The translations under genes were made by a program, and so were the position numbers. A stretch of 64,000 nt of DNA from Aphelidium insulamus (lineage: Eukaryota > Aphelidiomycota > Aphelidea > Aphelidiaceae). Of this stretch, positions 299-20,437 are shown in pieces. The stretch spans positions 149,052 through 213,051 of the forward strand of contig JAZDSV010000027.1 in the NCBI GenBank assembly GCA_036784855.1, given 5' to 3'. The notes under the pieces were generated by a model. That model saw nothing but the letters and a program-made list of their open reading frames with translations, did no database searches and was not told the DNA's origin. Within the stretch, counting starts at the first letter, position 1, and the number at the start of each line of letters is the position of its first letter.

Positions 299-1186
299 AT
301 GTTCAAACTATTGACGGCAGCTGGAATTGCTTGCTGTTCCATTGCATACTATGCCGCAGTGTACGTGCTGATTTCAATGTGAAATGCATTTATATATCAT
401 GCCATAATCAACTGTGCAGCTCCCATGCAAGCTTGTCCGACATTCGCTGGCCATTGCGTGGCACTTGGTACGGGACGGATCTGCTATTAGCGGGCAAGAA
501 AAATACTGTCACCTTTTGTTTCGCGCGGTATGCATACACCACATGGTAATTGTTATATCTGATCTTTTGCACATAGACGGCCAGTGGCGCTTGATGCTGG
601 CAGTACCAAAATTGTCATGTCGGGCAAGACAAATGGAGGCGTCTGGAATCGCCGACTCGTCCTACAGTCTGAAGTACAGACTGAAAAACTGGTGTTGTCC
701 GATAATGGCGAGCTGTTGCCTGCCAGCCTAAGTGGTTACATCACTAGTGATCAAGAAGTGCTGTTGCGCCAGGCAAAAAAGCACCTATGCTACGTGCTCC
801 GTTTCACCATAGATAAGAGGGCAAGCTTATTCGTGGGCAAGGTATCGCTGAAGCTGCGCAAGATGTCCAACCGATTCTTCAAGACAATAAGTATCAAGAA
901 GCACGTCCTTATATCTACGGCGGAACCAAGCAATCCCGAAACTGAAACGAAATGGGAAGAGCTTCGACGTGAGTTTAGACAGGTGGCACGCGGAGGGCGA
1001 TTTGATTTCCAAAAAATTGATGTTATATTGGAAGCACTGGGCAAAAGCGACAACGCAATGCCCTCTGAAGATATGAAATTTAAACTGGCGAAAGCAATAA
1101 CTGACTTGCCGCCTGACGCGCTTGAACCTCGCCCCGATATCTCGACTACGATAAAAGATCTGTGTGGCCTTTCCAAAAAGAAGTGA
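299..1186 (+). CDS. secreted protein, novel family, copy 1
   Basis: Three exons, 299-360, 420-527 and 577-1186, joined by GT-AG introns, give 259 aa. Exon 1 encodes a signal peptide (MFKLLTAAGIACCSIAYYAA). Exon 2 is exactly 108 nt, as in the other two copies, and both junctions are phase 2. Conserved features are WPLRGTWYG at the mature N terminus, a Cys in TFCFA, a second Cys in KKHLCYVLRFT and a basic stretch KVSLKLRKMSNRFFKT. The two conserved Cys could form a disulfide. The C-terminal part is probably helical and is poorly conserved. I do not recognise the family. Secretion is predicted from sequence and the function is unknown. A tRNA-Arg gene follows on the same strand. Confidence 0.85.
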
Positions 1187-1318
1187 TAGCCGTGGCCATC
1201 AAGTAATCGACACGTCCTTAATCCATCTAAGCAATATATTTTCGATAGCGTTTTTTGTTACCGTGTAAATCTACAAAGCCGCCCAACATGTTTATCGTGT
1301 GCTTCATGTGGTCAGCTG

Positions 1319-1392
1319 GGGATTGTGGCCTAATTGGCTAAGGCGTCTGACTACGAATCAGGAGATTGCAGGTTCGAGTCCTGCCTATCTCA
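1319..1392 (+). tRNA. tRNA-Arg(ACG)
   Basis: A 74-nt cloverleaf: acceptor stem GGGATTG/CTATCTC with G-U and U-U pairs, D stem GCCT/AGGC, anticodon stem-loop with ACG, T arm GCAGG-TTCGAGT-CCTGC. A T8 run directly downstream would serve as RNA polymerase III terminator. The sequence is identical to the tRNA at 20739-20812. Both lie downstream of a secreted-family gene in the same orientation. Confidence 0.95.
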
Positions 1393-1478
1393 GCTTTTTT
1401 TTGCACATCATACAATATGCTCTCTCCATGCTTCTTTCTTTATCTTCCTGTGCTTAACAACTTTTTTTTTGTAAGTCA

Positions 1479-3607
1479 ATGACGGCCACACTGCTGGGCA
1501 GACGCATTCAGGTGCGCGGCAAGGGCAGCTCGGGGGCTGATACCGGCACCGTGCGCTACCACGGCCCATTAAATACCGACGACAGCCATACAGCCCAAGC
1601 TCCCAGCGGCGAATGGCTCGGCGTGGAGTGGGACCATGATGGCCGCGGCAAGCACAGCGGTCAGCACGCAGGCCGGCAGTACTTTAGCTGCGCGTACGTA
1701 CTTGTTTTATATGGTGCATGAGATGATAATCTATGGTGTAGTCCCGGCCGCGGCTCATTCATACGGCCGCGGGCTGCGGACTTTGGACGGTGTTTCATGG
1801 ACGCGTTGGAGGAAAAGTACGGCGGTGGTGGCGGCGCAGGGATGACCACTACCACTGAGACCACCGTCAGCGACGGCATTCAGCTACAGTTTGGCGACAC
1901 GGGCATTGCGGTAGAGTTTCGCGGGGCTGCCAAGACAGAGCAAGTGCAAAGGTATCATTACTAGATGTACTTATGTCTTGATATCAAACATACAGCCGGC
2001 TGGACTGCTTGACTATTGTTGGACTGGCGCACATGGCGATTTCCACTGCCGTCAACGAAAGTAGTTGGGACACTAATTCCACCGGCGAAATCGCACGCAC
2101 CTGTCCCAATATTCAAGATCTGGATCTGTCCGACAACTTGCTTGGCGCATGGACCGAGGTTGCGCTCATTGCCTGCCAGCTCCCGCACTTGGCCTCACTG
2201 CGCTTAAAGTACGTGTCATAAACGTCATTGTCGATACTCAATGCTCGTAGCCGGAATCGCTTTGATGCGTTAAAGACTGCGCTACCTGGTGGCTCGTTTT
2301 ATAGCCTGACGGCCCTGTCGCTAATGGAGACGCGAATTTCATGGCGGGAAGTATGTTCAGTCGCCGCATTCATGCCAGAGCTGGAACAATTACATCTGGG
2401 TCACAATGGCATCAAGTCACCACTTGCCGGCGATGGACCCTTTGAAGCACAGCCACTGACTGCGCTGACGTTGCTCTCCCTGGAAAGCAATCAACTCACA
2501 GACTGGGCAGACCTGACAACTGAACTGGCAAGAAGGACCCCGCGGTAATTCTATTGTGATAAGATTCGATCCAACTCATTGGTAGATTACAAGCGTTGAA
2601 TGTGCAAAGTAACGCATTCACTGTCATCACAGAAGAAATGGAATCACCCGAACTGCCTACATTGACAACGCTGAACTTGAGTCGAAATCCAATCCATTCA
2701 GTGCGTTCAACTACTTGTCATGTCCTTGTTGACCGCTTCACTTTACAGTGGACCTCGGTCAATGCGCTGGATACGGTACTGCGTGCCATGACCGAGGTGC
2801 GGCTCCGTGGCTGCGCTGTGATCACTGGCGGCGCGGACGAAGCCGCCACTCGAATCGAGTGTATTGCCCGCCTGGGCCGAATCCAGTCGTTGAATGGTTC
2901 CACGGTGCGATGATGTTTATTCTTTACTTGGTTTATTTTATTCCCGATGCGTAAAAGATATCGGCGAAAGAAAGGCGCGAAAGCGAGCTATACTATCTGC
3001 AGCAATATGCGGCGCAGTGCGCTGCTGCTACTGATCCGAAGGCAATGTCCGAGTTTAATGTTCAGCACCCCCGATATGCGCACTTGGTGTCAGGTAAGCG
3101 ATATTCGAGCATTCAATTAACACTTGTTGTTCAACATCCATGTAGTTCATGGCGCCTGTATCGCCATAAACAAGGGCGATCAAGGCAAATTGAAGAGCTC
3201 TCTCATAAGCACGTAGCTTTATTCTAGTGATTGTTTGACTAACTGGCAGATGTCAACCTTATCGTACAGAGTGGAGATGGCGCTGACTGCCGACATATTT
3301 GCAAAAAGTTGCCTGGTATGTTAAAATCACCTCAAATGGATGTATTGTATGCTGATAAACAGCGAGGACCACGTTCCGCACGTTGAAATCTGTGGTGCGC
3401 CGCCTGATCCGCATAGGCAGCTCGGAGACAATGGCGATGCACTTGATTGTCGGTGCCACCGCGGTGTCAGAACGCGTACAGAACAGCGAGCCGAGCGATG
3501 ACCAGATGGTGTGTGTGGACGATGAACCGATGCGAGAGCTGGCGTTCTATGTGGACGATAGCCGCGATGGCGCTCCAGAACTGTTTATTAGAGTCATGCA
3601 TAATTGA
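1479..3607 (+). CDS. TBCE: tubulin-specific chaperone E
   Basis: Ten exons (1479-1693, 1742-1951, 1996-2208, 2251-2544, 2586-2700, 2749-2904, 2958-3093, 3146-3208, 3250-3315, 3363-3607) give 570 aa. The N-terminal CAP-Gly domain contains GEWLGVEWDHDGRGKHSG and GSFIRP. A central leucine-rich region follows, with LDLSDN, LSLESNQL and LNLSRNPIHS, then the family's RRESELYYL...HPRY segment and a C-terminal ubiquitin-like domain. TBCE acts with cofactors C and D in alpha/beta-tubulin heterodimer assembly and disassembly. The intron after 3208 must start with GC; phase counting across all ten exons only works with that boundary. Start and domain order match the family. Confidence 0.93.
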
Positions 3608-18988: not shown

Positions 18989-19145
18989 ATTTGAATCGTG
19001 TTGATGTGTGTGTGTGGGAACTGAGAGAGAACGCCTGACCAACAGCAACGCATCGGTGGCGCTTCCATTGTGCTGGCTTGCGAGTGTGTGGCTGTGTGCC
19101 AGTGTGGCTGTGTGCCTGTATCTGTGACAGTGGATCGGGATCAAA

Positions 19146-19199
19146 TTGGCTGCGACAGTCAGGGGCACATTCCATTGAGCACGTGAATGAAGCGTGATT
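19146..19199 (+). promoter_or_regulatory. bipartite motif between AP2 gene and secreted-family copy 3
   Basis: TTGGCTGCGACAGTCAGGGG (19146-19165) and GCGTGATT (19192-19199) match the pair at 186-243 in sequence and spacing (46 versus 50 nt). A TATA-like GTATAAA lies at 19204. The motif sits between two diverging predicted secreted genes and could serve both. Confidence 0.45.
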
Positions 19200-19422
19200 T
19201 CGGGTATAAAGTCGGCTCAGTACGCGCATGTGTGTTCAACAATTACAACACTTCTCTCTAACGTTCATCAATATTCTTCTTCACTACACTCGCTCGGCGT
19301 AGTCAAATTCCCAAGTCAGATCATATCACCGAAACCCCCTTTTTACGCAACTGTTTTCAACACAAGTATCCCAATTCCATCTTTTATCAGTCCACTCCAG
19401 ATTTACTCGCCGCTTTAGCGCC

Positions 19423-20437
19423 ATGAAATTGGCTTTCGCAGCAGCAGCGGTGCTCGGATTCTGTGCTACGGGGTACGTACGCGTCTACGTGTGTCAGATA
19501 TGATGGCATGAGTAACCTCTGTTAGCGCCAATGCCTCGTTGGGTGATGTGCGTCTGCCTTGGCGTGGCTGGTGGTACGGTCCTAAAGAGCTGCAAATCGG
19601 CGCCGAGGCCCGCCAGACATTTTGCTTTCGATGGTACATAATTATACCATATAGTCATTTACATACAAATGACATATTAGGTATCCGGAGAAACTGGATG
19701 ACTCCATCCAGATCGTCTTTACCGGTAAGGCAATACGGCCGAAAGATGGACGTACGCGACCCATTTATGACGTTATGGCTGCTACTTCCGAAAGGCTAAA
19801 GCTGACAAGTAGCGGCAAGCTGCCTGATAGTGTGATGGACTATCACTTGGCTGATCAAGAGAAACTTTTGGAGAAAGCAAAAAAGCACGTGTGCTACGTT
19901 TTACGATTCACCATTGCGGATCACGCAAAAGTGTTTATCGGCAAAGTTAATATGAAATTGCGCAAGAATTCTAACCGAGTAATGAAAACGATCAGCGTCA
20001 AGAGAAACGTCGAGCTCTACGAACAATCTGCTGTTGACCGAGTGCAGCCAGATTTATCGCAGGAAGCAAAGCGCTCAGCGCCACATCATGGTACTCAACG
20101 TGATGATAAGAGTGTCCCGAGCCCCAATGAAGCCGGCACAAGCGCTCACAATGCAGAAAGTTCAACTAATAAGATTAACAAAAGGAAATCTGTCGACTAT
20201 CTATGGGTGAACCTGATGAATGAAGTCCTGACGGTGATTAATACGGATGGCACACTTGACAACGTTGATACAATTGTAAAAGAATTACGCGAGCTTAATC
20301 TGCCGCCATCAATCGGTACAAAGCGATATCTTGAAGCTTATGCCATGGAAGGCCGTTTTGGCGAATATTTCCGACAAAAGAATCGCATGGACCTCCTGGC
20401 TGAAATTGCGAGACTGGGAAATCTCAGTAAAGGCTAA
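19423..20437 (+). CDS. secreted protein, novel family, copy 3
   Basis: Exons 19423-19472, 19526-19633 (108 nt) and 19681-20437 give 304 aa. The signal peptide is MKLAFAAAAVLGFCATG. Conserved family features are LPWRGWWYGPKEL, TFCFRWYPEKLDD, KKHVCYVLRFT and KVNMKLRKNSNRVMKTISVK. It resembles copy 1 more than copy 2. A Ser/Asn/Lys-rich insertion (about residues 185-225) separates the conserved core from a helical C terminus. As with copy 1, a tRNA-Arg(ACG) gene lies downstream on the same strand. Confidence 0.85.

What the first reader, a model, noticed from the sequence alone, without database searches (positions are those of the whole stretch)
299..20437. Three-member family of secreted proteins with rigid exon design and no recognised homology
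Copies at 299-1186, 4735-5593 and 19423-20437 share a signal-peptide exon ending in phase 2, a middle exon of exactly 108 nt, and a long last exon. Conserved blocks are PWRGxW(Y/F)G, TFC(F/Y), CYxxxF and K(V/L)xMKLxxxxxK. I know no domain with this pattern. Sequence divergence between copies shows selection has kept the core and let the C terminus vary. The dispersed copies fit an expanding, possibly host- or environment-facing family.
Basis: partly seen in the sequence, partly recalled or inferred. Interest (0 to 1): 0.8.

Follow-up and report, generated by a model that had tools for sequence, protein, structure and literature searches.

The report
Large modular family of secreted proteins
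The three genes belong to a larger, apparently undescribed family of secreted proteins that share one small beta-sandwich domain and carry very different tails, in what is probably the genome of a microscopic parasite that lives inside algal cells.

Summary
In detail: three gene models lie at the stated coordinates, each with a signal-peptide exon ending in phase 2, a 108-nt middle exon and a long last exon. Three members is too few: searches of the window's own genome give 25 places on 13 contigs. The phase plan recurs; the 108-nt length does not. The shared part is a domain of about 140 residues with two invariant cysteines and an R-x-P-[FWL]-R-[AG]-x-W-[FY] motif after the signal peptide, predicted as an immunoglobulin-like beta-sandwich. 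Tails differ: helical, acidic, ankyrin (C167), kinase-like (C129), or a second domain copy (C58). No relative was found among 5.8 billion proteins, in Pfam or in PDB sequences. The genome (17.95 Mb, window GC 51.9%, flagellar gene nearest chytrids among named hits) best fits Aphelidium, an algal parasitoid whose feeding stage sits in host cytoplasm. Most likely reading: a lineage-specific modular family that reaches host cytosol by ordinary secretion. Family and exon plan are shown; fold is predicted; organism, delivery and function are inferred.

The parts
299..360 (+). copy 1, exon 1: start codon and signal peptide, donor GTACGT, phase 2
420..527 (+). copy 1, exon 2 (108 nt): IRWPLRGTWYG...TFCFA
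577..1186 (+). copy 1, exon 3: rest of beta domain (to about 910) and variable tail; acceptor 576 preferred over 603
4735..4799 (+). copy 2, exon 1: signal peptide, cleavage motif AEA at the junction with exon 2
4846..4953 (+). copy 2, exon 2 (108 nt): VRVPWRGRWFG...TFCYR
4954..5010 (+). copy 2, intron 2: 57 nt, in frame and stop-free; translated into the structure model it holds the low-confidence residues 39-41 and 43-53
5011..5593 (+). copy 2, exon 3: rest of beta domain (to about 5353) and predicted helical tail
19423..19472 (+). copy 3, exon 1: signal peptide, cleavage motif ANA
19526..19633 (+). copy 3, exon 2 (108 nt): VRLPWRGWWYG...TFCFR
19681..20437 (+). copy 3, exon 3: rest of beta domain (to about 20020) and variable tail

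Best explanation
A lineage-specific, expanded family of soluble secreted proteins built on one module. Shown by sequence: a signal-peptide-like first exon; a module of about 140 residues with two invariant cysteines and the motif R-x-P-[FWL]-R-[AG]-x-W-[FY]; C-termini that change from member to member, from short tails to an ankyrin-repeat region, a kinase-like region or a second copy of the module; 25 places on 13 contigs. Predicted: the module is an immunoglobulin-like beta-sandwich. Inferred: the two cysteines form one disulfide; the organism is an aphelid (Aphelidium or close kin), an intracellular parasitoid of algae; because its feeding stage is immersed in host cytoplasm, ordinary ER secretion alone would place these proteins in the host cytosol, which explains why a signal peptide can precede ankyrin and kinase-like parts that normally work in cytosol. 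The module would be the constant binding or stabilising unit and the tails the parts that act on different host targets.
For: Gene models and shared exon phases. Nine own-genome protein searches and a DNA motif pattern with 17 matches against 0 for the reversed control; 14 of the 17 are family loci, 10 already known when the pattern was drawn and 4 new. Conservation in the 18-row alignment: first Cys 17 of 17 readable rows, second Cys 18 of 18, Phe 18 of 18, Trp, Pro and Gly 17 of 18 each. No transmembrane-like segment (highest 19-residue hydropathy mean 1.33) and no KDEL/HDEL end in 17 of 17 modelled sequences (the fusion genes were read only to the end of their first open frame). Ankyrin region after the module at C167, Ank_2 E 1.5e-13. 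Two successive modules at C58. Structure models with pTM 0.57 and 0.72; listed fold neighbours are mostly Ig-like or other beta-sandwiches. Genome size and GC near those of Aphelidium insulamus, 18.9 Mb and 52.05%. Nearest named relatives of the window's axonemal dynein chain are mostly chytrids. Aphelid trophonts are stated to be immersed in host cytoplasm.
Confidence: 0.5

Rival explanations
1. Secreted but self-directed: lumenal proteins of the parasite's own digestive vacuole, cyst or zoospore surface, with the Ig-like module used for adhesion or protein assembly.
For: Ig-like sandwiches are common in adhesins and surface proteins; listed fold neighbours include the adhesin FdeC, ICAM-1 and pilus-associated proteins. 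Aphelids are phagotrophic (abstract start of PMC6299283 in the listing).
Against: No transmembrane-like segment or KDEL/HDEL tail in 17 of 17. Ankyrin and kinase-like parts are unusual for a digestive or extracellular role (recalled). The tails of the window copies are hardly alignable.
Confidence: 0.28
2. An ordinary ancient family (for example lipocalin-like or NIS1-like) that has only diverged beyond sequence detection.
Against: All below thresholds; the best PDB sequence match is a different protein, DCC1, at E 0.13. NIS1 is not among the 50 rows shown for the domain-only model, so that match is not stable, though absence from such a list excludes nothing.
Confidence: 0.15
3. Artefact: the signal-peptide exon belongs to another transcript, or the copies are assembly duplicates.
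For: No RNA evidence. Some loci are near-duplicates (C146 and C163, 94% over 1,067 nt). Start codons were chosen by a script or by eye with a preference for hydrophobic exons.
Against: The same phase 2/phase 2 plan, which was not scored, appears at 10 loci whose proteins are mostly under 50% identical (one search gives 19-45% to copy 3), so assembly duplication cannot explain it.
Confidence: 0.07

Closest known systems
RAYH / AvrSen1-like proteins of Synchytrium endobioticum (PMC6572847 and PMC12503489, passages seen)
   Same: Species-specific, expanded, secreted; conserved intron-exon boundaries and one motif with otherwise highly variable proteins; in a zoosporic parasite near or within fungi.
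   Different: The RAYH motif lies in a long alpha-helix at the core of those proteins; here the module is predicted as a beta-sandwich with two cysteines, and RAYH occurs in 0 of 17 family sequences.
Secreted ankyrin-repeat proteins of plasmodiophorids (PMC12503489, passages)
   Same: Secreted ankyrin repeats in an intracellular parasite of photosynthetic hosts.
   Different: Here ankyrin repeats are one of several tails attached to a shared beta module; a different eukaryotic lineage.
RXLR and Crinkler effectors of oomycetes (recalled)
   Same: Constant N-terminal part, variable C-terminal parts, large families.
   Different: RxLR near the start in 2 of 17, dEER-like in 0 of 17, LFLAK in 0 of 17; the constant part here looks like a folded domain, not a short leader.
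NIS1 of Magnaporthe oryzae (8xgl)
   Same: Small secreted beta-sandwich protein of a fungal parasite; rank 2 in one fold comparison.

Membership tests
Immunoglobulin-like beta-sandwich fold | Two packed beta-sheets; nearest solved structures Ig-like with a significant score | tested here: inconclusive
Lipocalin / nitrophorin | Profile match above the curated cut-off | tested here: not met
   Pfam Lipocalin_5 12.1 bits against cut-off 25 for copy 3; PDB profile E 0.35-0.5
Lipocalin / nitrophorin | Eight-stranded barrel | tested here: inconclusive
   Model has eight strands but barrel closure could not be checked; no lipocalin among the rows listed, which excludes nothing
NIS1 | Fold match to 8xgl standing above unrelated rows | tested here: inconclusive
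RAYH / AvrSen1-like | RAYHxxVFExLKxLF motif | tested here: not met
   RAYH in 0 of 17 family sequences
RXLR effectors | RxLR near the N-terminus followed by dEER | tested here: not met
   RxLR in the tested range in 2 of 17 (anywhere in 5 of 17), dEER-like in 0 of 17
Host-directed effector in the functional sense | Shown to act in or on the host | not testable with these tools
   Needs localisation or interaction data
Protein kinase superfamily (C129:496k member) | Pfam kinase model above cut-off | tested here: not met
   13.0 bits against 23.1, and Kdo 14.8 against 21.3, in two separate pieces; glycine-rich loop, HxD and DLG-like motifs were read by eye
Ankyrin-repeat proteins (C167 member) | Pfam ankyrin models above cut-off | tested here: met
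   Ank_2 51.5 bits against 27.3 in the frame following the module; the join across the frame change is inferred

The most novel reading that the evidence does not exclude
This is the first candidate host-manipulation protein family of aphelids, the sister group of fungi: a disulfide-stapled Ig-like module that the parasite has combined with ankyrin, kinase-like, disordered or duplicated modules and that reaches the host cytosol by plain secretion, with no translocation machinery, because the trophont feeds from inside the host cytoplasm.
Probability: 0.35. Interest if true: 0.75.

Novelty: new variant of a known kind. Interest (0 to 1): 0.5.

Why it matters
Expanded secreted families with a constant N-terminal unit and variable tails are known from parasites of plants. 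I saw none described for aphelids in three searches of the open library (listings only) or in the Aphelidium genome paper, where the words ankyrin and effector do not occur; subscription papers and supplements were not seen. If organism and role are right, the sister lineage of fungi gains a first testable effector-like family, and a simple case in which secretion equals delivery into the host.

Tried and rejected
Lipocalin and NIS1 membership were pursued because of weak PDB, Pfam and fold hints, and dropped because nothing reaches a threshold and the hints change between models. Synchytrium endobioticum as source was considered and judged unlikely: its assemblies are 21.48 and 23.21 Mb, RAYH is absent from this family, and for the window's dynein chain the top database hit is 51% identical and no listed hit exceeds 60%, although proteomes of that species are public (recalled; not checked to be in that database). 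RAYH does occur twice in the six-frame translation of the whole window, outside the 17 family sequences; not followed. A segmental duplication of gene plus tRNA-Arg was tested: the shared DNA around the tRNA is only 82-102 nt, so rejected. dN/dS was not run because of saturation. Three of the 17 pattern matches (C2, C45, C139) are not family members by translation. Possible further members at C1:894670 (E 0.004), C64:70388 (0.019), C108:247923 (0.036) and a motif at C4 near 9,023 (0.194) were not counted. Left out of the database query A2 (16 rows): C129:371k (internal stops), C112:90.6k (frame change), C163 (disrupted), C64:128k, C58 and the C4 places other than 7.7k.
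Full report
WHAT IS THERE. Three gene models fit the stated coordinates: 299-1186, 4735-5593 and 19423-20437, all on the plus strand. Exon 1 encodes a hydrophobic signal-peptide-like start and ends in phase 2 in 3 of 3; exon 2 is 108 nt in 3 of 3; exon 3 is long. The enumeration gave one open model for copies 1 and 3 and three for copy 2, of which one matches the other copies. Copy 1 has two possible acceptors for intron 2 (576, 603 preferred by the script); 576 restores P-x-x-LD seen in the other two copies. Core identity between copies is 35, 39 and 49%, with scores 19 to 26 SD above shuffles; tails score 0 to 2.3 SD above.

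THE FAMILY IS LARGER. The window is part of contig C94 of a 17.95-Mb, 169-contig genome. Nine searches with single members give 18 places that reach E 0.01 or better with a different member as query: C94 (3), C93, C109 (3), C129 (2), C167, C146, C64 (2), C119, C112 (2), C108 (2). Six further places on C4 (3) and C58 (3) form a branch linked to the rest only at E 0.025-0.07 but to each other at 3.8e-5 to 2.9e-20; the one that was modelled (C4:7.7k) has the same cysteines. C163 holds a near-duplicate of C146 (94% over 1,067 nt). That makes 25 places on 13 contigs; places are not always separate or intact genes, and the search tool calls its counts lower bounds. A DNA pattern drawn from the members then known matched 17 times against 0 for the reversed pattern: 10 known family loci, 4 new ones and 3 non-members (where 7 of the 17 were translated).

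EXON PLAN. Of 14 loci modelled by script (the two extra loci that repeat copies 1 and 3 not counted), 10 have clean first two introns, both phase 2 in 10 of 10: the three window copies, C109 (3), C93, C119, C108:213k and C64:192k, the last with a further intron by eye. Exon 2 is 108 nt in the three window copies and 99, 102, 102, 105, 123, 126 and 132 nt in the other seven. C146 is modelled with 108 nt but its first exon is uncertain. C129:496k and C167 have an open frame running through the place of intron 2, so appear to lack it; C163 is disrupted. The script rewarded hydrophobic first exons and mildly an exon 2 near 108 nt; it did not score phase.

THE MODULE. In an 18-row alignment the first cysteine is kept in 17 of 17 readable rows, the second cysteine and a phenylalanine five residues on in 18 of 18, a tryptophan, a proline and a glycine in 17 of 18 each, two arginines in 16 of 18 each. 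Signal-peptide-like starts are seen in 16 of 16 rows with a modelled start and an AxA motif in 11 of 16. None of 17 sequences has a transmembrane-like segment by hydropathy or a KDEL/HDEL end.

TAILS. Window copy 2: predicted helical, low confidence. C109:126k: acidic and histidine-rich by eye. C167: ankyrin repeats in the next frame (Ank_2 E 1.5e-13), joined by an inferred intron. C129:496k: glycine-rich loop, HxD and DLG-like motifs of a kinase by eye in two frames, below Pfam cut-offs; its paralogue at C129:371k has internal stops, one at the conserved cysteine codon. C58:10-11k: two stretches match the same part of the module (E 2.9e-20 and 4.1e-5) about 500 bases apart, with no second signal-peptide exon seen between them by eye.

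RELATIVES ELSEWHERE. None at E <= 1 among 7,998 scored candidates (three-row query) and none at E <= 10 among 5,900 (16-row query) from 5.8 billion proteins. Pfam: no family matches more than one row; best E 0.073 for 3 rows and 0.0075 for 16 rows (cytochrome c-551, one row). PDB sequences: best E 0.35 and 0.13. The word-based first step of the protein search misses very distant relatives.

ORGANISM. The window's axonemal dynein intermediate chain (245 hits, 120 listed, most unnamed) has as named hits in its first 23 rows four chytrids (Clydaea, Cladochytrium, Nowakowskiella, Podochytrium) and one alga; the top hit is 51% identical over 83% of the query, and no listed hit exceeds 60%. So the organism has or had a flagellum and is probably near fungi. 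Window GC is 51.9%. Aphelidium insulamus has 18.93 Mb, 52.05% GC, 274 scaffolds (PMC10608142, passages). A Kelch-kinase gene with a putative membrane span read by eye lies in the window, and that paper mentions receptor-like kinases of aphelids. I put about 0.75 on an aphelid; this is inference.

HOW IT MAY WORK. The same paper states that aphelid trophonts are immersed in host cytoplasm. If so, a signal peptide alone exports a protein into host cytosol, and cytosolic-type tails after a signal peptide make sense. Sequence, family and exon plan are shown; the fold is predicted; organism, disulfide, delivery and role are inferred.

JUDGEMENT. A real, well-defined, apparently lineage-specific family. 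Lineage-specific secreted families are common in parasites, which limits surprise; the shared Ig-like unit with interchangeable tails, in this lineage, is what is new. The closest parallel seen in print is the RAYH set of Synchytrium endobioticum, where intron-exon boundaries and one motif are conserved and the rest varies (PMC6572847, passages), but fold and motif differ.

Noticed in passing
window 17714-19213 (-): Open frame with a signal-peptide-like start, several basic KRRR-type stretches and a weak AP2-like DNA-binding region (Pfam AP2 E 0.0051, below cut-off), divergent to copy 3: a possible secreted, nucleus-directed protein.
   Followed up: partly
window 27056-28426 (+): Signal-peptide-like start within the frame followed by ankyrin repeats (Ank_2 E 3.9e-23).
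   Followed up: partly
window 3631-4525: Transposon-like element with 43-nt, 86% complementary terminal inverted repeats, ending about 210 bases before copy 2; a further half-repeat abuts it at 4524-4542.
   Followed up: partly
window 1319-1392 and 20738-20814: Two of four exact copies of a 73-nt tRNA-Arg(ACG) sequence in the genome, all on this contig; these two lie just downstream of copies 1 and 3, but the shared DNA is only 82-102 nt.
   Followed up: yes
window 4954-5010: Intron 2 of copy 2 is a multiple of three and stop-free, so retention would give a protein with 19 extra residues.
   Followed up: partly
window 37684-39714 (+) and 45893-50069 (-): Kelch repeats plus protein kinase, and a second kinase frame downstream of a long frame with a hydrophobic segment: by eye they look like receptor-type kinases.
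   Followed up: no
window 9398-10093 (+): Part of a GH26 glycoside hydrolase (E 1.4e-7).
   Followed up: no
L059 (C129:371k, - strand): Family member with kinase-like tail that carries internal stops, one at the first conserved cysteine codon; looks like a pseudogene.
   Followed up: partly
L031 (C146) and L053 (C163): Near-duplicate loci, 94% over 1,067 nt, the second disrupted.
   Followed up: partly
window 41406-42422 (-): Axonemal dynein intermediate chain, so the organism has or recently had a flagellum.
   Followed up: yes
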